Assembly: GCF_005981925.1 (NCBI RefSeq)
Contig: NZ_VBVX01000032.1
Location: forward strand, 1 to 35,819
Origin: Streptomyces albidochromogenes
GTDB taxonomy: Bacteria > Actinomycetota > Actinomycetes > Streptomycetales > Streptomycetaceae
Direction of reading: 5' to 3'
Length of the DNA: 35,819 nucleotides
Under the pieces are notes generated by a model that worked only from the letters and a program-made list of their open reading frames with translations, did not search any database and had not been told where the DNA came from. Every line of letters starts with the position of its first letter. The stretch's first letter is position 1. Positions 4,964 through 35,819 of this stretch are shown piece after piece. Position numbers and translations under genes: made by a program.

Positions 4964-5253
4964 GTGCTAGCGTTGCCCATGGCGAGGCCATGAAGGGGCT
5001 TCCTTCTCAATTCCCTTTCTGAAACAAGTTCCTTCGCTTTCCTCGTCCTCGACGTCGCCCCGGGCGGTGCCCGCGCTCACCGCGCGAGCGCCGCCCGAGC
5101 CGTTGCGAGGGCCCATTCCGCGTAGCCACGGCCAAAGAGCACAGCGTGCACCAGCAGCTGGTGTCCGCCCTGTCGAGGGCTCCGTCCTCGACGGGCCCCG
5201 GCCTCCCCTCCGCGCCCTCTCCAGGGCGAGGCACTCCTTGAGCTTTTCCATCC
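4964..5253. other. Non-coding spacer
   Basis: Between the TerD-like gene and the IS5 remnant. Frames on both strands are low-complexity Arg/Gly/Pro readings. No supported gene, and no clear terminator after 4963. Confidence 0.35.
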
Positions 5254-5510
5254 TCACTCTGAGCTGGCCAGATGCAGAGTGAGGACGGCCTGGACGAGGG
5301 GTGATCCCTGTGGTCGAGCAGCGGAGCTTGCGGAGGAGTCGCCAGCAGGGCTGGTAATGCCCACAGCAGTCGGCCGAAGGGGTCGGCGATGACTTGCACG
5401 TTCATCCCGTGTTTCTTGTGCTTGCCAGAGCAGAACGGCCGGTCCACGGCGATGCGGTCGATCGGCAGGAGCGTGCCATCCAGGAGGACGAATTCCTTCG
5501 CTGAAGCAGT
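5254..5510 (-). pseudogene. IS5-type transposase remnant, internally deleted
   Basis: On the minus strand, 5337-5510 encodes EFVLLDGTLLPIDRIA, then SGKHKKHGMNVQVIADPFGR. This is the first-aspartate region of IS5-family DDE transposases common in Streptomyces. Directly after it another frame reads WRLLRKLRCSTTGIT and, one frame further on, LVQAVLTLHLASSE before a stop at 5254-5256, which is the normal C-terminus of the same family. The central part, with the second catalytic Asp and the final Glu, is absent. The gene therefore carries an internal deletion and frameshifts and cannot make a transposase. The 5' end is also unclear. Confidence 0.75.
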
Positions 5511-5595
5511 CCGCACCGCGTTAGTACCGCAACCGTGTCCGTCCGCTACGAGGCGACTGTGCTGCTTGCAACCATCAACGAATGGCTGTGACCGG

Positions 5596-17081: not shown

Positions 17082-17525
17082 TCAAAAGTTGTACGTGCTC
17101 CCCAGGCAGCTGTCGCCGAACCTGTGGGAGTTCATGTTGTCGTTGGCCTGCTTGGTGGAGGTGATGTAGATGCTCGCCATGTTCTTCACCCTGCCGTAGT
17201 CTGCGATCTTGAAGCAGGGACCGGCGTATCCGGAGTTGTAGAACACCGAGACCCTGGAGTCCGGGTCCATGTTGTTGATGGAGCTGACGTTGTCGGGGTG
17301 GTAGTCACCCTGGTAGACCGCGGGCTGGCCGCCGTAATAGGTGATCTGGGACCAGTTGGGACGGGAGCTGAAGTCGTCCCGAACCAATCCATTGAAGTCG
17401 CTGTCCGAGTGGAGACAGACGTTGTCCCAGGTGCAGTTGTAAGCCTGCGCGGGCGCGGCCATGGCGACTCCCGCGCCGAACAGAGATGCCACGGCAAGCA
17501 GCATCGCCGAAGTGCGTCGAAGCAT
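17082..17525 (-). CDS. Peptidase inhibitor family I36-type secreted protein (copy 1)
   Basis: A 147-aa secreted protein. The ATG at 17525 follows GAGGAAAG and begins a Sec signal peptide (LRRTSAMLLAVASLFGAGVA, cleavage likely after APAQA). The mature domain of about 115 residues has the crystallin-like inhibitor pattern: CTWDNVCLHSDSDFNG, DNVSSINNMDPDSRVSVF and GPCFKIADYGRVKNM, ending NNF-like in GSTYNF. I36 proteins such as the Streptomyces metalloproteinase inhibitor block extracellular proteases. Four Cys could form two disulfides. It is a clear paralogue of the gene at 17625-18068, with the same leader, SD and downstream hairpin. The differences are concentrated in the loops after the first Cys pair, which may reflect a changed target. 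Confidence 0.85.
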   Translation of the reverse strand: MLRRTSAMLLAVASLFGAGVAMAAPAQAYNCTWDNVCLHSDSDFNGLVRDDFSSRPNWSQITYYGGQPAVYQGDYHPDNVSSINNMDPDSRVSVFYNSGYAGPCFKIADYGRVKNMASIYITSTKQANDNMNSHRFGDSCLGSTYNF

Positions 17526-17624: not shown

Positions 17625-18068
17625 TCAGAAGTTGTACGTGGTCCCCGTGCAATTGTTGGTGAAGTTGTGCGAGTTCATGTTGTCGTTGGCGGTCTTGCCG
17701 GAGCTGAGGGGGATGCTCGCCATGTTGCCCACGCTGCCGTAAGCCGCGACCTTGAAGCAGGGGCCGGCGTATCCGGAGTTGTAGTAGACCGAGACCCTGG
17801 TGTCCGGGTCCCAGTTGTCGATGGAGCTGACGTTATCGATGACACCGTCGCCCGCGTAGAGCCGCCAGCCAGCGTATTCGTAGGAGATGATGGACCAGTT
17901 GTCACGGGAGTTGAAGTCGTCCCGCAGGTATCCGGTGTAGCCGCTGTTCGACCAGAGACAGACGTTGTCTTGGGTGCACTCCCGTGCCTGTGCGGGCGCA
18001 GCCATGGCGACTCCCGCGCCAAACAGGGATGCCGCGGCAAGCAGTATTGCCGAAGCGCGTCGAATCAT
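17625..18068 (-). CDS. Peptidase inhibitor family I36-type secreted protein (copy 2)
   Basis: A 147-aa paralogue of the next gene downstream. The ATG at 18068 follows GAGGAAAG and starts the signal peptide IRRASAILLAAASLFGAGVA with cleavage near APAQA. The mature part reads CTQDNVCLWSNSGYTGYLRD, then DNVSSIDNWDPDTRVSVYYN and GPCFKVAAYGSVGNMASI, ending GTTYNF. This is the I36 inhibitor pattern with conserved Cys positions. It is expected to act outside the cell on proteases, its own or those of competitors. A perfect inverted repeat GATGTGCA/TGCACATC lies 88-110 bp upstream of the start and may be a regulator site. A truncated AraC gene lies beyond that. Confidence 0.85.
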   Translation of the reverse strand: MIRRASAILLAAASLFGAGVAMAAPAQARECTQDNVCLWSNSGYTGYLRDDFNSRDNWSIISYEYAGWRLYAGDGVIDNVSSIDNWDPDTRVSVYYNSGYAGPCFKVAAYGSVGNMASIPLSSGKTANDNMNSHNFTNNCTGTTYNF

Positions 18069-26548: not shown

Positions 26549-28693
26549 TCAGGGCCACCGCAGCGTACTGGCCTTGATCAGGGGGGTGTGGTTGGTTTCG
26601 GTCCATTCCATGCGGGCCTTGAGGTCCTGGATGCAGATCTCGTGGCACGTGCGGATGGCGAGACCGGGAGCGACCCGGGACGTGTAGTTCTGGACCTGCG
26701 CGATGTTGCCCTTGACGGTGGCAGTGACGTTCGTGAGGGAGACCTCAGGGATGGGCGCGTCGGGGAAGGTGCCCCGCAGGATGAAGACGCCCCCGCCCTT
26801 GGCGAACAGCGGCTTGGCCACCGTGGTGGGTCCCGTTCGGAATCCGCTGCCGTTGCCGGTGATCAGGCAGCTCGCGTCCACCGTCACTCTGATCTTGCGC
26901 ACCTCGAAGACCTCGTGCTGGATCGCGGTCCACATGTCGGGGAAGCCGGCCATGTCGCCCTCGGTGTCCGCGAATACCAGCAGTCCGCCGCCCGGGTGGT
27001 CGCTGGTGATGTTGCCGCTCGGCCCACCGGGCGTGGTCCCGATACTGGTCGTGGTGAGCGCGAGATCGGCGTTGCGCACCGAGATGCCGCCCCCACCCGG
27101 CGTCGCCACCGGAATGGAGGGCTTCGCGGGTCGGTCGATCGTGAAGGGGCCGACCTTGATGGACGAGGCGGGCCGGGCTTTGGACATCTGGGTACCGGGT
27201 CGGGTGCCGCACGCGTTGTGGTCGACGGTGCTGCCGGTGAAGGACCCGGCGGATCCCATGGAGAGGCGGACGCCTCCGCCCATGCCGGGGGCACTGTTGC
27301 CGTCGATCCGGCAGTCGGTGACGGTGATACGGGAGAGCACGGAGGCGTAGACACCGCCCCCGTCGTCGCCGCATTCGTTGTGCGTGATCGTGGACTTCTT
27401 GACGGTAATCGACCGGGTGCGGGCGGCCTTGATCTCGTCCTCGTTCCAGGCGTCCCAGCGGCCCAGCGCGAGCGATGTGGCGGCGAACACGTAGAAGAGC
27501 TCCCGAAACAGCAGTTCCGGGTCTTTGTAGCTGTTGCTCAGGAACAGCATCAACCGCCGAAGGTTGTCGGTGATGACGGGGGGCTGCGTGGGGTCGAGCA
27601 GCCACCGGGCGAACTGCATCAGTTCGAGCGGGCTGGGGATGGGCACCGATGCCATGGCGGCGCGGGCCGCCGACGCTTTGCTCCGGAGGAACCGCACCAG
27701 TTCGATCTCGCTCAGATCGCGCGGCAGCTTGCCCGGCAGGGAGATTTCCGCACCGATGCCGCCGCCGTCGAGGCGTCCGCGGTCACCGCTGCGGTTGCGG
27801 TCGATCCAGCAGTTCTCCACCGTGGGCCAGCCGTACCCGATGACCGCGAGGCCCGAGCCCCGGCCCTGGGCGCGGTTGCTCTGGATGCGGCAGTTGCGGA
27901 TCACGGCACTCGACCAGACGGTGGCGATGCCGCCACCGAAGGCTTGGCCGGCCAGCCAGTTGACGCCCTTGCCGGGCGGGATGTGGGCGTCGAACTCCGT
28001 GCCGATCATGTCCTTGACGATGTTGCGGTCGAACGGCGGAATGGGGGCGATGCCGACGGGGAGGTTGCGGATCAGCCGGTTGGCCGCCTCGATCATGAGG
28101 TTGAGCGCCATCTCGACGAACGGCGGGACGACCGTGTCGACCAGGTCCACGAGGTCCTTCCGCAGCGCGGCGCGGTCGGCCTCCGGCCAGGCAGGGAGCG
28201 ACGCAGCCTGCGTCTGGCAGCCGGTCACTACGCACCGCTCGATCAGGACATCGTCGGTGTCGACCACCGCGATGCCGCCGCCCGCGCCGAGGGCCTGGTC
28301 CGGGCCACCGGGCACGTGGACGGCTCGCCCCTGGGTTACTCGCAGGCCTCTGACGACCACCGGCCCAAGAGGCTTGCCGGGGGCGCCGGACACACGCAGC
28401 ACACGGTGCTGGGCACCCGACTTCGGCGCGAGCGTCGGCAGTGCCCGGACGTCGAACGCCGGGTTGCTCGGGTCGGCCTGTGGGTGAGCCCGGAGGAACT
28501 CGCTGGTCAGCGTCAGGGGCTTGTCGATGACCAGCTCGTCCTCGAGGTAGGTGGCGGCGTCCAGGATCACGACCGTGTCGCCGGCGGCGGCAGCCTTGAG
28601 CGCGGCACCGACCGAGCGCGCGGGCTTGGCGGGCGTGTCGAACCTGCCGCTGGACGTGCCCTTGGTCGCGTGGACGAAGCGGGTGCTCGCCAT
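26549..28693 (-). CDS. Right-handed parallel beta-helix protein
   Basis: A 714-aa protein, last gene of a three-gene operon. It opens with the pectate-lyase-like entry ALKAAAAGDTVVILDAATYL (about 30-50), then many turns of beta-helix repeats such as GGGIAVVDTDDVLIERCVVT, GSGLAVIGYGWPTVENCWID, GGGVYASVLSRITVTDCRID and GGGISVRNADLALTTTSIG. A helical insert of about 130 residues (roughly 325-420) interrupts the solenoid. There is no signal peptide or membrane helix, unlike typical secreted lyases. No catalytic lyase residues can be identified by eye. Beta-helices of this sort serve as carbohydrate-active enzymes, phage tailspikes or adhesins. The ATG at 28693 lies 4 bases past the stop of the 98-aa gene. 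Function unknown. Confidence 0.85.
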   Translation of the reverse strand: MASTRFVHATKGTSSGRFDTPAKPARSVGAALKAAAAGDTVVILDAATYLEDELVIDKPLTLTSEFLRAHPQADPSNPAFDVRALPTLAPKSGAQHRVLRVSGAPGKPLGPVVVRGLRVTQGRAVHVPGGPDQALGAGGGIAVVDTDDVLIERCVVTGCQTQAASLPAWPEADRAALRKDLVDLVDTVVPPFVEMALNLMIEAANRLIRNLPVGIAPIPPFDRNIVKDMIGTEFDAHIPPGKGVNWLAGQAFGGGIATVWSSAVIRNCRIQSNRAQGRGSGLAVIGYGWPTVENCWIDRNRSGDRGRLDGGGIGAEISLPGKLPRDLSEIELVRFLRSKASAARAAMASVPIPSPLELMQFARWLLDPTQPPVITDNLRRLMLFLSNSYKDPELLFRELFYVFAATSLALGRWDAWNEDEIKAARTRSITVKKSTITHNECGDDGGGVYASVLSRITVTDCRIDGNSAPGMGGGVRLSMGSAGSFTGSTVDHNACGTRPGTQMSKARPASSIKVGPFTIDRPAKPSIPVATPGGGGISVRNADLALTTTSIGTTPGGPSGNITSDHPGGGLLVFADTEGDMAGFPDMWTAIQHEVFEVRKIRVTVDASCLITGNGSGFRTGPTTVAKPLFAKGGGVFILRGTFPDAPIPEVSLTNVTATVKGNIAQVQNYTSRVAPGLAIRTCHEICIQDLKARMEWTETNHTPLIKASTLRWP

Positions 28694-28697
28694 GCAT

Positions 28698-28994
28698 TCA
28701 GCGCCCGTGGACGCGTGGCAGCCGCGTGGGCACCCCGGGCGCGGCCGGTTGTACGGGCGCCCGCTGACCGGCTGACGGGCGGTAGACCTGGAGGCGTTCC
28801 TCGTTCCGCAGGTCGTCCGCCGGGCGGGGCCGGACGGTGCTGACCACCTTCAGCCGCTCCCAGGCGGCCTCGGCGTACGCCTCGCGCTGAGCCCGGCCGA
28901 CCTGTTCCTCGTACGCGGCCAGGTCCGTGACGTACTGGGCGTGCACAGTGTCGAGCGCCAGTGGCGTCCTGAGGCTCGTGTGCGTCGCGTTCAC
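28698..28994 (-). CDS. 98-aa protein resembling a segment of its upstream neighbour
   Basis: A GTG at 28994 overlaps the TGA of the 910-aa gene (GTGA) and the stop lies 4 bases before the beta-helix ATG, so the three genes are translated as a unit. Residues 20-72 (DLAAYEEQVGRAQREAYAEA, then AWERLKVVSTVRPRPADDLRNEERLQVYR in part) match residues about 591-641 of the 910-aa protein (AEYQKEVDRLQHEAYGQAVR, then RLRLISSMRLRSSEDLRNEE). The shared part is a charged amphipathic helix followed by a turn with LRNEER. The C-terminal 26 residues are Pro/Arg-rich and unmatched. It could be a helical assembly module or competitor for the same contact in the large protein. This is inference. Confidence 0.7.
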   Translation of the reverse strand: MNATHTSLRTPLALDTVHAQYVTDLAAYEEQVGRAQREAYAEAAWERLKVVSTVRPRPADDLRNEERLQVYRPSAGQRAPVQPAAPGVPTRLPRVHGR

Positions 28995-31723
28995 AGTTGT
29001 TGGCCCGTCTTGGGGTCGTACTTGACGCTGACGGCGACGACTTGGTCGGTCGGGAGCACCTCAACCCATTGATCGAAGACCTGATAGGGCTCTGCGGGGC
29101 GGAAGCCACCGGCCAGGGGATCGAACCCGTTCTCGAAGACCTTGTCGGCGGCGAGCGTCGTGTCGAAGTTCTCCTGGGCCAGGGACCGCAGGTGCGTGGC
29201 AAGGCGGTCCAAAACCTGGCCGACCGTTCCCTGGAAGTCTTGAGGGTCGTCGTCCTTTCTTGTGTACGTCTTGCCAAGGCCAGCTTCTCCCTCGACCTTC
29301 TTCAGCCAAGCGAGCGCAGCTTGTTCCTGGCCGGGCCGGACGGGCAAGACCACTTTGGCCCAAGCAGCGTTCAGGAATTCATTGCGGCGCTCGTCGGCGT
29401 CGATCTGGATCAGCCAGCCCAATGAACTTCCGAGGGGTGCTGGCACGGTCTCTTCGGAGATCAGGTAGTTGACCCGCCACTCGTACGGCGGCGATGGCGA
29501 CGTGCTATTGGGCAGCGCGTAGAAATCCGCACCGGAGTACCATCCTGCGACCGTCTGGCCGGCCAAAGGCTGCAGTGGGTTGCCGGGTTCGGGCTTCGGA
29601 ATGGGGCGTACAGGATACCTGCCGGTGCTCTGGGCGGAGGGCGTGGGCGCGTTCACCGCGCCAGCGCGCCAGAAGTCGGGGGAGACGAAGTAAAGCATCT
29701 CGTCGACGTCGAAGAACTTCTGGATCTCTTCCGCCTCCAGGTACGGCGTGTTGTTGTTGGGCGTGGGGTAAATGCCCTCCGGCAGCTGCTTGATCAGGTT
29801 CCGGAAAACGCATCGGCGCTCCTCGTTGCGCAGGTCCTCGGAGGAGCGGAGACGCATCGAGCTGATCAGGCGCAGCCGCTCACGAACGGCCTGGCCGTAC
29901 GCCTCGTGCTGGAGCCGGTCGACCTCCTTCTGATATTCGGCCTGTGCCGCTTCGTTGAGTGTCTTGACCTTATTCTTGGCCTCATCCGTCGGCTCATAGA
30001 CGAGCGTGAGGTCGAATGGGAGGGATTTGCGGCCCTGGAAGTTGGCGTACGTCATCTTCACGTTGAGCGTGTGGGGGTTGGTCGACGTATTCACTGTGAA
30101 CGGAGCGAACTCGACCTGGGCGCCGTGTTTGTCCAGGGAATGCACCTTGCTGAAGATGTAGTCCACCGGAACGGGTGGCAGCGGCTTGGGGAAGCAGAAC
30201 TGGATGATGTCGTCCTTCCCCGGAAGGTAGTCGGGAGTATCGTTCAGCCCCCGGCAATCGTTGCCCGGCTCGGGCAGATAAGTCAGCTCGGCCTCGTCGT
30301 CCGGGCCCTGCTCGTGCTGGAAGGAGATTTCGAAGTGGTAGGGCACTTCCTTAGTCGCCGGCTCCGGGATCTTCTCCGGCTTCTGGATCGCGCTGAGGTC
30401 AGGCGCGGGAACGACGTGCACCATGTCCCCCAGGCCGAGTTCCCTGCCGGGATCCATCAGGTGGATCTGCCAGCACAGGCGTGATCCGACGTGTTGCAGC
30501 TGGATGCCGACCTTGCGCATCTTGCGCCGCATCTCGTAGTTCACCAACTCGGAGGTCGTGTTCTGCAGGACGTAGCGGCGACTCGATGTGTCGGTGGTAT
30601 CCGTAACCGTCCGGAACGTCGTCTTGAAGTTCCGCTTGATCTCGCTGGTGACCTTGGAGGTCTGCGTGCGGGCGCGCTTGTGCGTCGTCTCGGCACCCCG
30701 CTTGACGGTGTTCTGAGTACTGAAACTGAGACTAGCGTCGGCATGATAAATCTTGGCGTTCACCCCACCCGTGGCGCTCACGCCGAGTTTCGTGTCGTTG
30801 GCGTTCTCCTCCTTGACAGCGTCCGAGACATCTGTCTGATCAGTGAGGCTCTCCTCGCTCTTGCGGGAGACCTCCTCCGACTGCTCCACCACCTTCTCGA
30901 CCAGGGTGCGCCGTGTGCTGCTCTCCACCACCTCGACAGTGCCTCCCGGGCTGACCCAGATGTGTCCCGAGGGGGTTCCTAGGAAGTTGTCGAACTCGAA
31001 GAAGTACTCACGGAAGAGGTTGACCAGCCCCACCGGGGACAGTGCTCCTCCCGCGCTAGCGCTGTAGCGGTCGGCCAGCGCCTTCAGACCGGGCTGGATG
31101 AGCGTCAGGGCGTCGCTCCCGTGGAAATTCTCACGGGTGAGAGCGCCGATATCGGACGACGGGTGAATCTTCTTCGCAGACATTCCGGCCGTGGCCCCCA
31201 CCCACCCGGACAGCGGCTGATAGACGCCGAACAGTTCACTGTCGTACGGCAGCGCTCCTGCGAAGTCGTACAACGGCCGTCCGGTGAACGCGGGCGCGCC
31301 GGCAGCGGGCACGACCAGACGCTGGGAATGGCTGGCCGCGCCGCCGTCGGGAACGGCTTCGTACTGGACTTCCACCAACTCGTTGCCGGGAGTGGCCTTG
31401 AAGAGCTGGACCAGGCCGCTGGATGTCTGCGCCGCGGCGACGAACGCGATCACCACGCTGCCGGCCGCGCTGGCCCGGGCCGCCACGTACTGGCGTGTCC
31501 CCTCAGGGCTCCGCCACACGAGAGTCCCGCTCAGCGCGTCCACGCCGGGATAGGCGCTGGGGTCCACCACCGTGACGCTGCCCGGGAAGGCCATGGTCAT
31601 CCGGCGCCCGGTGACGATCTCGGTGTTGGAGCCCTCCACCTTGTACGACCAGATCCGATATGCACCGCCGCTGGACGTCACAGGAAGGGATGACGTGCCC
31701 AGGAATGTGACTGTGTACGTCAT
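28991..31723 (-). CDS. 910-aa protein of unknown family
   Basis: First gene of the operon. The ATG at 31723 is chosen for its GAGGAG site 7 bases upstream. The N-terminal 250 residues are beta-rich (TYTVTFLGTSSLPVTSSGGA). A polar segment follows (about 266-381) with EKVVEQSEEVSRKSEESLTD and a Thr/Lys/Arg-rich run (RGAETTHKRARTQTSKVTSE), probably helical or coiled. Then come a beta domain (RRYVLQNTTSELVNYEMRRK, LCWQIHLMDPGRELGLGDMV), the module shared with the 98-aa protein (about 591-641), and a mixed C-terminal region ending KYDPKTGQQL. No signal peptide, membrane helix or enzymatic motif is visible. I do not recognise the family. The layout with a beta-helix partner suggests a structural or surface assembly, but that is speculation. 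Confidence 0.8.
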   Translation of the reverse strand: MTYTVTFLGTSSLPVTSSGGAYRIWSYKVEGSNTEIVTGRRMTMAFPGSVTVVDPSAYPGVDALSGTLVWRSPEGTRQYVAARASAAGSVVIAFVAAAQTSSGLVQLFKATPGNELVEVQYEAVPDGGAASHSQRLVVPAAGAPAFTGRPLYDFAGALPYDSELFGVYQPLSGWVGATAGMSAKKIHPSSDIGALTRENFHGSDALTLIQPGLKALADRYSASAGGALSPVGLVNLFREYFFEFDNFLGTPSGHIWVSPGGTVEVVESSTRRTLVEKVVEQSEEVSRKSEESLTDQTDVSDAVKEENANDTKLGVSATGGVNAKIYHADASLSFSTQNTVKRGAETTHKRARTQTSKVTSEIKRNFKTTFRTVTDTTDTSSRRYVLQNTTSELVNYEMRRKMRKVGIQLQHVGSRLCWQIHLMDPGRELGLGDMVHVVPAPDLSAIQKPEKIPEPATKEVPYHFEISFQHEQGPDDEAELTYLPEPGNDCRGLNDTPDYLPGKDDIIQFCFPKPLPPVPVDYIFSKVHSLDKHGAQVEFAPFTVNTSTNPHTLNVKMTYANFQGRKSLPFDLTLVYEPTDEAKNKVKTLNEAAQAEYQKEVDRLQHEAYGQAVRERLRLISSMRLRSSEDLRNEERRCVFRNLIKQLPEGIYPTPNNNTPYLEAEEIQKFFDVDEMLYFVSPDFWRAGAVNAPTPSAQSTGRYPVRPIPKPEPGNPLQPLAGQTVAGWYSGADFYALPNSTSPSPPYEWRVNYLISEETVPAPLGSSLGWLIQIDADERRNEFLNAAWAKVVLPVRPGQEQAALAWLKKVEGEAGLGKTYTRKDDDPQDFQGTVGQVLDRLATHLRSLAQENFDTTLAADKVFENGFDPLAGGFRPAEPYQVFDQWVEVLPTDQVVAVSVKYDPKTGQQL

Positions 31724-31913
31724 CGAGACGCTCCTCACCTCGTCGTATTTCCACTGTCATATTCGCCTGACATTCGGAGCGAGGCGCGCTGAGACGCAGC
31801 CAGCCACCTGAATGGCTGGCCGATCGTGTGACGGGGCCCCCTCATCGGGTCGGTGAGCAGCGCGCGAGGTGTACGGATGGGACGATGTCTCATCAGCTAC
31901 GGGAGGTGCACGC

Positions 31914-32108
31914 GTGAACGTCTATGTCGTCGAGTACACGACACCCAGGACCCCGCCCCTGAGGGAACGCAAGGTGGAAGCAGACGACTTCGCGGTGAGG
32001 GACACGTTCGTGGAGTTCACCACTGCCGACGGCAGGAAAGTCTTCAGCGTCCGCGCCGAGACCGTTGTGACCATCGCCAAGATGGCCCCGGAACCACCGA
32101 CCACGTAA
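31914..32108 (+). CDS. 64-aa protein of unknown function
   Basis: The GTG at 31914 has a textbook GGGAGG seven bases upstream. The product (NVYVVEYTTPRTPPLRERKV, then DFAVRDTFVEFTTADGRKVF and SVRAETVVTIAKM) is balanced in composition and predicts a small beta-barrel or sheet with the FVEFTTADGRKVFSV hairpin. It resembles short Streptomyces hypotheticals but I cannot name a family. It is divergent from the 910-aa gene across 190 bp. Confidence 0.6.
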   Translation: MNVYVVEYTTPRTPPLRERKVEADDFAVRDTFVEFTTADGRKVFSVRAETVVTIAKMAPEPPTT

Positions 32109-32172
32109 GGATGCACGAACCAGCATCTGTAGCTCTTCTGGAGAGAAGGACGTGGCTCAGGTGGTCAGCCGG

Positions 32173-32310
32173 TAAGTGGCCTGGATAGAGCCGGTGGTGT
32201 TCGCGTTCGGTGTGGAAGGTCCAGTAGGTGTCGAGGTTGCCGCTCGCGGTGAGGGCACGAAGGCGGAGTACGGCTTCGGCTCCTTCGGGTCCCCAGCCGC
32301 TTCGGTGATG
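32173..32310 (-). pseudogene. ISKra4-type transposase C-terminal fragment
   Basis: The minus strand reads WGPEGAEAVLRLRALTASGN, then LDTYWTFHTEREHHRLYPGH. The pattern GAEAxLxLRAxxxNGDxDxYWxxHxxxEHxR is the C-terminal hallmark of ISKra4-family transposases. The catalytic core upstream is missing, and other frames up to about 32400 carry only scraps. The assignment rests on this one block. Confidence 0.6.
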
Positions 32311-34802: not shown

Positions 34803-34862
34803 CTGATCACAGCCACTCGTTGATGGCTGCTACGAGCAAATCTACTTTCGACACACGACCTA
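34803..34862. repeat. Insertion-sequence end with MITE-like terminal repeat
   Basis: CTTTCGACACACGACCTA (34845-34862) matches the MITE right end (5790-5807) and the reverse complement of its left end at 15 of 18 positions against the latter. Next to it, the reverse complement of 34803-34830 matches 5568-5595 at 24 of 28 positions. Both loci therefore carry the same two sequence words, in different order. The stop codon of the IS630 transposase overlaps the repeat. Confidence 0.5.
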
Positions 34863-35576
34863 CTGATCATTTCGTAAGTTCGGTGGGTGTAGTGGGTGGA
34901 TGGTCAGGCCGGTGTGGGCGAGGAAGGACCATGACAGTTGTGGGTTGTGGTTGATGCGGTGGATGCCTTGCTCGGTGGCGTCGGCGACACCGGCGAGGTG
35001 GTCGCCGGCGAGGTTGGCGAGTTCACGTTTCTTGAGTGAGGACCACAGCAGCTCCACCGGGTTCAGCTCGGGTGCGTAGGCGGGAAATCGCTCCAGGGTG
35101 AGCCAGTCCTGGCCGGCGACCCAAGCCCGCATCGCCCGGCTCCAAGGGGCGGATAGGCCGTCCCAGACCAGGACCACCCGCTCGCCGCGGTAGAACACCT
35201 TCATCTGCTCCAGGACCTCGATGAGGGCGGCAGTGTCGTAGCTGCCGGGCTTGAGATGGAAGCACAGGCGGGCCCCTCGACCGGGGTCGGTGGAGTGGTA
35301 TCCCAGGGCCCCGGCCATCGACGCCCGCTTCCAGTTCAGTCGGTGCCGCAGCAATGGGGTGCGGCCTCGGGGTGCGTAGGTGCGGCGGATCTGAGGCAGC
35401 AGGGAGACACCTGATTCGTCGAGGAACACGATCCAGGCACGTGTGTTCACTGCCCCTTTTTGATCCGCGGCCACTCGTGCGCGATCCAGCGGGCGATCTG
35501 CGACTCGTCCCCCTCGACCGCCCGCCGCTCGGGCCGCTGCAGACTCCATCCGAGCCGGCCGGTCAGCAACCGCCAC
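34860..35576 (-). CDS. IS630 transposase, catalytic half (ORF B)
   Basis: This frame carries the DDE domain: first acid in RAWIVFLDESGVSLLPQIRR, second in GERVVLVWDGLSAPWS, third in FPAYAPELNPVELLWSSLKK. These are the IS630/Tc1 signatures. The second motif has Pro where His is usual after DGLSA, probably tolerated. Real similarity begins near 35470, so the ATG-like start at 35576 is formal. Expression is expected by -1 frameshifting from ORF A at an A5G4 run. The protein ends HPPNLRNDQ at a TAG that overlaps the repeat at 34845-34862. The catalytic residues are intact, so the element could be active if the missing 5' part is. Confidence 0.85.
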   Translation of the reverse strand: MAVADRPARMESAAARAAGGRGGRVADRPLDRARVAADQKGAVNTRAWIVFLDESGVSLLPQIRRTYAPRGRTPLLRHRLNWKRASMAGALGYHSTDPGRGARLCFHLKPGSYDTAALIEVLEQMKVFYRGERVVLVWDGLSAPWSRAMRAWVAGQDWLTLERFPAYAPELNPVELLWSSLKKRELANLAGDHLAGVADATEQGIHRINHNPQLSWSFLAHTGLTIHPLHPPNLRNDQ

Positions 35577-35819
35577 ACCGACGCCCTCGACAGCACCACT
35601 CCCGTCACCCGCTCAACGACGGCGCCAACTCGCTCCAGGGTCCACAGGTCGGCCTCGAAACCATAGGCTTGTGCTCCTCTCTCCAATGCGGCCCGGACGG
35701 TCTCGACCTGGGCGTCGTCCAGCTTGGGCGGGCGACCGGTGGCCGCACGCCGCCGCAAGGCCGAAGCACCACCCTCCTCCCACGCCCGCCGCCATCGCCG
35801 CACGCTCTCGGCGCACACC
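35447..35819 (-). CDS. IS630 transposase, DNA-binding half (ORF A, partial)
   Basis: The frame runs off the right edge of the window, so the N-terminus is missing. Visible are the helix-turn-helix CAESVRRWRRAWEEGGASAL, the linker RRRAATGRPPKLDDAQVETV and a second winged-helix domain (LWTLERVGAVVERVTGVVLS, RASVWRLLTGRLGWSLQRPE). It ends EWPRIKKGQ at TGA 35447-35449, right after the frameshift run. This is the standard DNA-binding half of IS630 transposases. Confidence 0.85.
   Translation of the reverse strand, partial: VCAESVRRWRRAWEEGGASALRRRAATGRPPKLDDAQVETVRAALERGAQAYGFEADLWTLERVGAVVERVTGVVLSRASVWRLLTGRLGWSLQRPERRAVEGDESQIARWIAHEWPRIKKGQ
35453..35461 (-). other. Probable -1 frameshift site (A5G4 run)
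   Basis: On the minus strand the ORF A codons ATC AAA AAG GGG CAG TGA contain AAAAAGGGG. A slip of one base back at A AAG GGG lets both tRNAs re-pair and continues in the ORF B frame (GGG GCA GTG AAC). The stop of ORF A follows two codons later, as in known IS630 frameshift windows. Confidence 0.6.

What the first reader, a model, noticed from the sequence alone, without database searches (positions are those of the whole stretch)
26549..31723. Unrecognised three-gene operon: 910-aa protein, 98-aa partial paralogue, 714-aa beta-helix protein
The genes are coupled by a GTGA overlap and a 4-base gap, so they are made together. The large protein belongs to no family I recognise. The beta-helix protein lacks a signal peptide and has a helical insert. 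None has a membrane segment or clear enzyme motif. Large intracellular proteins made with a solenoid partner could be a particle, tail-like or surface structure released without Sec, or a stress assembly. This is the best candidate for a new system in the window.
Basis: partly seen in the sequence, partly recalled or inferred. Interest (0 to 1): 0.65.

Follow-up and report, generated by a model that had tools for sequence, protein, structure and literature searches.

The report
Widespread carrier protein with swappable partners
A probable Streptomyces genome carries a 910-residue member of an unnamed protein family that recurs in several bacterial phyla and an archaeon, usually just upstream of a different, sometimes toxin-like gene, so it may be the constant half of a mix-and-match weapon or defence, and the three-gene set seen here is just one such pairing.

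Summary
The three ORFs are real, but the set was found nowhere else. In the closest relative found (S. cellostaticus, L003) DNA homology (91%, 3.2 kb) covers the 64-aa and 910-aa genes and stops 8 bases past the 910-aa stop codon; another gene follows there. The 98-aa ORF holds about 47 residues of a carrier's helical segment, probably a recombination scar. No second full-length beta-helix protein was found.

The 910-aa protein has no significant match in Pfam, NCBIfam, PHROGs, PADLOC or PDB sequences. 31 collected carriers (Actinomycetota, Pseudomonadota, Bacteroidota, Cyanobacteriota, a haloarchaeon) share a core of about 184 positions, whose sequence suggests helix / amphipathic beta-hairpin / helix. 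A same-strand gene of at least 300 aa follows closely in 23 of 30, against 37 of 126 background genes. Partners differ; only 3 of 35 scanned pass a Pfam cut-off (beta-helix, patatin, VWA), several others look toxin-like below it. Best reading: a carrier paired with exchangeable effectors. Delivery is inferred; both structure predictions failed (pLDDT 34, 41). Intracellular defence is a serious rival. A tail-like particle is not supported: no PF06841 tube protein in this genome.

The parts
28991..31723 (-). 910-aa carrier protein
   Evidence: Open frame; relatives; no significant Pfam/NCBIfam/PHROG/PADLOC match
30443..30991 (-). Core of the carrier (residues 245-427), found in all 31 collected carriers
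   Evidence: Iterated HMM from the window core; profile A16 finds it in 17 of 150 genus genomes, five of which gave rows to the profile
30722..30796 (-). Approximate amphipathic beta-hairpin inside the core (about residues 310-334)
   Evidence: Two-residue hydrophobic periodicity, z=10.8 against shuffles with one row per cluster; helical periodicity in the flanks
28698..28994 (-). 98-aa ORF holding a partial copy of a carrier's helical segment, probable recombination scar
   Evidence: 39-60 residue matches to carriers, none to the collected partners
26549..28693 (-). 714-aa right-handed beta-helix protein now in the partner position
   Evidence: PF13229 48.6 bits; no other full-length copy in 295 genus genomes, plasmids or phages
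31914..32108 (+). 64-aa gene linked to the carrier, divergently transcribed
   Evidence: Found in 3 of 31 loci: window, L003 (divergent) and L016 (between carrier and partner)
28983..32177 (.). 3.2-kb block 91% identical to S. cellostaticus, ending 8 bases past the carrier stop codon
   Evidence: blastn

Best explanation
The 910-aa protein is the constant part (carrier) of a two-part module whose second gene, directly downstream, is exchangeable. Shown: a shared core, a downstream partner in most loci collected, and partners that differ even between near relatives, with the break at the carrier's stop codon. Inferred: the carrier is a pore-forming or translocating protein, with a helical arm tipped by an amphipathic beta-hairpin that inserts in membranes, and it delivers or escorts the partner, an effector, into a competitor or across an envelope. 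In this genome the partner position holds a beta-helix protein (perhaps a polysaccharide-acting or binding effector); the 98-aa ORF is the scar of the swap. How the carrier leaves the producing cell is unknown.
For: 31 of 31 collected carriers share the core (collected by homology, so not independent). Downstream same-strand gene of at least 300 aa in 23 of 30 against 37 of 126 background genes; 16 of 20 clusters at 60% core identity (partner list set by hand); 4 of 6 further loci that could be judged. The same partner family recurs beside distant carriers: L040 and L082; a 380-aa family in L019, L020 and L053. Polymorphic-toxin hallmarks: the L056 partner and a separate 218-aa ORF share 78 residues, then have different ends, each with an HExxH; L045 and L056 partners match only in the middle. 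Weak toxin-domain hits, all below cut-off: Tox-MPTase4 (20.4 bits), Ntox4 (16.1), PT-TG (18.7), Het-C (16.4); one strong Patatin hit (79.3 bits, cut-off 27.7). Hairpin periodicity. Breakpoint at the carrier stop.
Against: No experiment. Both AlphaFold2 models are low confidence (pLDDT 34.1 and 40.8), so no fold supports a pore. No clear export signal in the 31 carriers by hydropathy; the most hydrophobic N-terminus is L016 at 1.64. 7 of 30 loci had no partner by the script: L022, L039, L044, L050, L052, L024 (a 3.2-kb contig) and L029 (a gene-calling miss); L083 and L085 also have none. Only 3 of 35 partner-position proteins scanned pass a Pfam cut-off. The beta-helix protein has no toxin hallmark, and no immunity gene was identified in the window.
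Confidence: 0.45

Rival explanations
1. Anti-phage or other intracellular defence system: the large protein senses an intruder and switches on an exchangeable effector (patatin, nuclease-like, membrane protein) that harms the cell.
For: No clear export signal in the 31 carriers by hydropathy; loci on plasmids and on contigs called viral; one carrier lies between CRISPR-like arrays (L029) and one near restriction-modification and VapC genes (L051); partners include a patatin and proteins with hydrophobic stretches.
Against: PADLOC had no match for the 10 proteins scanned, six of them carriers; orphan toxin cassettes and sub-threshold pre-toxin and Ntox-like hits are typical of toxins aimed at others; no ATPase or nucleotidase domain in the 12 whole carriers scanned with Pfam.
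Confidence: 0.22
2. Surface or extracellular scaffold that displays enzymes (a cell-surface degradation assembly), not a weapon.
For: Several partners look like hydrolases, the window's is a beta-helix, and one carrier has a Tectonin domain at its cut-off (L052).
Against: No clear signal peptides; toxin-like cassettes.
Confidence: 0.15
3. Part of, or cargo of, a phage-tail-like particle or contractile injection system.
Against: The host has no PF06841 tube protein (0 candidates; genome 99.99% complete but in 795 contigs). 12 of 19 carrier genomes tested have one (10 of the 15 in the genus; two further genus carriers, G046 and G069, were not in that call) against 64 of 101 in the genus, so no enrichment. 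No phage-collection hits for P0001 or the L053 carrier.
Confidence: 0.07
4. No functional module: the downstream genes are unrelated passengers and the adjacency is chance.
For: Most partners pass no Pfam cut-off (3 of 35 do) and the three-gene set is not conserved.
Against: 23 of 30 against 37 of 126 (Fisher p 2.7e-6, rows related); the same partner families recur beside divergent carriers.
Confidence: 0.08

Closest known systems
Polymorphic toxin systems (PMC3482391, passages read)
   Same: Constant part with variable toxins; orphan cassette in L056; pre-toxin-like hydrophobic segments in some partners
   Different: No carrier scanned matched a marker of the delivery routes named in the passages (signal peptide, TPSASD, VgrG/PAAR/Hcp1, WXG/LXG, PVC metallopeptidase, TcdB/TcaC, MuF, PrsW); the toxin is usually in a separate gene
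Streptomyces umbrella toxins (PMC11062931, passages read)
   Same: Streptomyces; large protein with long helical parts; variable toxin domains
   Different: UmbC has a TAT signal, ALF repeats and a fused C-terminal toxin; the window carrier has no Pfam family and no N-terminal hydrophobic segment
Two-component AB or pore-forming toxins (recalled, no call)
   Same: Separate translocator and effector proteins; amphipathic beta-hairpin between long flanks
   Different: No sequence relation found; fold unknown
Right-handed beta-helix proteins (PF13229)
   Same: The 714-aa protein matches the profile above cut-off

Membership tests
Polymorphic toxin system | Constant region with variable C-terminal or partner toxin | tested here: met
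   Family level only: L045/L056 partners and the L056 orphan; partner exchange in window versus L003
Polymorphic toxin system | Recognised toxin domain in the window's own partner | tested here: not met
   P0003 gives Beta_helix and weak NosD-type hits only
Polymorphic toxin system | Adjacent immunity gene | tested here: inconclusive
   Small genes follow the toxin-like genes of L056 and L045, no Pfam immunity match; none assigned in the window
Polymorphic toxin system | Known secretion leader | tested here: not met
   No leader domain in the carriers scanned with Pfam or NCBIfam; that the libraries hold all leader models is recalled
Umbrella toxin (UmbC) | ALF repeats | tested here: not met
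   Pfam scan of P0001, (that Pfam holds an ALF model is recalled)
Umbrella toxin (UmbC) | TAT signal | tested here: not met
   First 60 residues, best 19-residue hydropathy 0.63; no dedicated predictor run
Contractile injection system (component) | Tube protein PF06841 in the host genome | tested here: not met
   0 candidates in G000
Pore-forming toxin | Amphipathic membrane hairpin in a solved or confident fold | tested here: inconclusive
   Sequence periodicity met; models below usable confidence
Known anti-phage defence | Match to a PADLOC model | tested here: not met
   10 proteins including P0001-P0003
Beta-helix protein (714 aa) | PF13229 above cut-off | tested here: met
   48.6 bits, cut-off 25.9

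The most novel reading that the evidence does not exclude
The carriers are a further, self-contained route for delivering polymorphic toxins and lipase- or peptidase-type effectors, shared by bacteria and archaea, in which the carrier itself forms the membrane passage through its amphipathic hairpin and takes whichever partner is encoded next door, partners being exchanged by recombination at the carrier's stop codon.
Probability: 0.22. Interest if true: 0.85.

Novelty: new variant of a known kind. Interest (0 to 1): 0.6.

Why it matters
If right, a widespread protein family with no significant match in the standard libraries searched is the constant half of an antagonism or defence module. 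It would give function to many 'hypothetical protein' records, point to undescribed effectors (they sit next door), and in Streptomyces add to the known protein weapons. The core profile makes the idea directly testable.

Tried and rejected
Structure prediction of P0001 with a 3-row alignment (pLDDT 34.1) and of residues 220-430 with 8 rows (pLDDT 40.8): unusable. PDB sequence searches with P0001, P0003, A1, A13 and A16 gave nothing convincing (best E 0.1). I first took the C-terminal extension of L050 for a GH19-type enzyme by eye; the PDB search had no hit, so I do not claim it. 'PD-(D/E)xK-like' for the L019/L020/L053 partner is only my reading of motifs and is not claimed. 'Alpha/beta-hydrolase-like' rests on a Ser/Asp/His order and GxSxG-like motif in the five rows of A13, without library support. 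'M14-like' for L040/L082 rests on an HxxE...H...E pattern read from the alignment; Pfam gave L040 a sub-threshold aspartoacylase-type hit (17.0 bits, cut-off 25) and L082 nothing. Viral-contig scans with A4, A5 and A6 found nothing; A7 found only the L040 contig again. My gene caller misplaced frames in L029 and L086 and probably the carrier start in L022; L086 was left out of counts. Literature searches (listings) showed no paper on this family, but it has no name to search for, so absence from print is not established.

Full report
What is there. The window is one whole contig (C286) of a 7.27-Mb genome in 795 contigs. The three minus-strand ORFs are as described: 910 aa at 31723-28991, 98 aa at 28994-28698 overlapping by GTGA, and 714 aa at 28693-26549 after four bases. 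The GTGA overlap says little: the carrier ends CTG TGA, and CTGTGA always contains GTGA; the same letters start the partner in L004 and lie, with no gene found on them, in L003. The 714-aa protein is a right-handed beta-helix by Pfam. By hydropathy the 910-aa and 714-aa proteins have no signal peptide or membrane segment.

Is the trio a unit? No. In genome contigs two relatives of the 910-aa protein were found: S. cellostaticus (L003, 90%) and Streptomyces sp. MMG1121 (L004, 52%). Window and L003 are 91% identical over 3.2 kb, from 32177 down to 28983, that is the 64-aa gene plus the 910-aa gene, and homology ends 8 bases after the 910-aa stop codon. L003 has instead a 457-464-aa gene downstream. 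The beta-helix protein gave its own copy plus two short weak matches in 150 genus genomes, five besides its own in 295 (partly the same genomes), none in plasmids and none in phages. Searched against the collected carriers and partners only, the 98-aa ORF matches carriers over 39-60 residues, best at 67% to L004; I read it as a scar of recombination between carrier copies.

What the large protein is. It has no significant match in Pfam, NCBIfam, PHROGs, PADLOC or PDB sequences. Protein searches found it in 7 of 150 genus genomes, own included, on an Embleya plasmid, and, going out from distant members, on plasmids of Sinorhizobium, Ensifer, Cupriavidus, Tsukamurella, Chryseobacterium, Nostoc, Aulosira, Miltoncostaea, the archaeon Natronorubrum and others, and on five viral contigs records without given taxonomy. 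I collected 31 carriers. An HMM started from residues 222-440 of the window protein alone reached all 31 in three rounds, matching 166-184 of 184 positions. They were collected by homology, so this shows one family, not independent discovery; median pairwise core identity is 17%. A profile of 24 cores (A16) then found the core in 17 of 150 genus genomes (five of them gave rows to the profile) and 5 of 296 phylum genomes (three gave rows), own genome included in both.

Anatomy of the core. Averaged over 31 rows, the two flanks show helical periodicity and the middle shows two-residue (beta) periodicity. Against shuffles of the same residues, with one row per 60%-identity cluster (21 rows), the middle gives z=10.8 for beta and -4.2 for helix; the second flank gives z=10.4 and the first z=2.8 for helix. 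This is what a long helical arm with an amphipathic beta-hairpin would give, as in some pore-forming proteins (recalled). It is sequence evidence only: the two structure predictions have mean pLDDT 34.1 and 40.8.

Neighbours. A script asked whether a same-strand gene of at least 300 aa follows within 260-base steps: 23 of 30 carriers (L054, at a contig end, left out) against 37 of 126 other genes of at least 300 aa in the same loci, Fisher p 2.7e-6, with related rows in both sets. The seven misses are L022, L039, L044, L050, L052, L024 (a 3.2-kb contig) and L029, the last a gene-calling error. By cluster 16 of 20 have a partner, with the partner list set by hand. Of nine further loci found with the core profile, four have a partner (L079, L080, L082, L084), two do not (L083, L085), and three could not be judged (L078 ends 0.8 kb downstream, L081 is cut, L086 was not parsed). 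The exceptions matter: carriers of the L052/L083/L085 kind seem to work alone, L039 has a VWA protein upstream, and L044 has an upstream neighbour related to the downstream partner of L043.

What the partners are. Five type-A partners (L003, L004, L016, L017, L018) share a Ser/Asp/His order like alpha/beta-hydrolases, which no library confirms. L040 and L082 share a family that I read as M14-like, although their carriers are far apart. L019, L020 and L053 share another family; L053 is an unlabelled 36%-GC record. L046 has a patatin (79.3 bits). L056, whose carrier is close to that of Chryseobacterium, shows a toxin cassette: the 744-aa partner and a separate 218-aa ORF share 78 residues, then differ, each with an HExxH, with a sub-threshold Tox-MPTase4 hit. 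Sub-threshold hits to Ntox4, PT-TG and Het-C occur in L041, L021 and L079. In all, 3 of 35 partner-position proteins scanned pass a Pfam cut-off: the window's Beta_helix, L046 Patatin and L039 VWA. 13 of 39 partner-region proteins have a 19-residue hydropathy mean above 2.0, against 1 of 31 carriers (L051, 2.07).

Reading. The best account is a constant carrier with an exchangeable effector next door. That the pair acts on other cells is inferred from the toxin-like features of some partners; that the carrier makes a passage is inferred from the hairpin. An intracellular defence system explains the lack of clear export signals and the plasmid and CRISPR-side locations about as well, and I give it 0.22. 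A tail-like particle is unlikely: no tube protein in the host, no enrichment of tube proteins in carrier genomes (12 of 19 tested against 64 of 101), and no phage record for the two carriers searched.

Known work. The polymorphic toxin survey (PMC3482391, passages read) names at least eight delivery systems; no marker of these appeared in our scans. Umbrella toxins (PMC11062931, passages read) differ in TAT signal, ALF repeats and fused toxin. Text searches (listings) showed no description of this family, but a nameless family cannot be searched for well.

Scores. Carrier family with variable partners: about 0.9. Effector delivery by the carrier: about 0.45. Beta-helix as the current effector of this copy: about 0.35.

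Noticed in passing
L029 2331-3216, 9808-10938, 17040-17551: CRISPR-like arrays (61-base spacing, repeat like CTGCTCCCCGCACCCGCGGGGATGGTCCC) lie on both sides of the carrier gene in this same-genus genome.
   Followed up: partly
window 31914-32108: A 64-aa gene without Pfam family sits divergently beside the carrier; its homologue in L016 lies between carrier and partner. Function unknown.
   Followed up: partly
L056 9628-12957: Toxin-like gene, small gene, orphan cassette sharing 78 residues, in a viral contigs record whose carrier is close to that of Chryseobacterium.
   Followed up: partly
L019 9395-12112 (carrier residues 813-873): A type II secretion pseudopilin-G domain (PF08334, 40.9 bits, cut-off 21) inside a carrier; L020, 84% identical, was not scanned.
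   Followed up: no
window 17082-17462 and 17625-18005: Tandem pair of 126-aa proteins, 65% identical to each other.
   Followed up: no
window 34860-35818 and 5007-5516: Transposase-like ORFs, by eye only.
   Followed up: no
G106: L017 and L084: One genome carries two carriers of very different types, one with the hydrolase-like partner and one with an L038-like set.
   Followed up: partly
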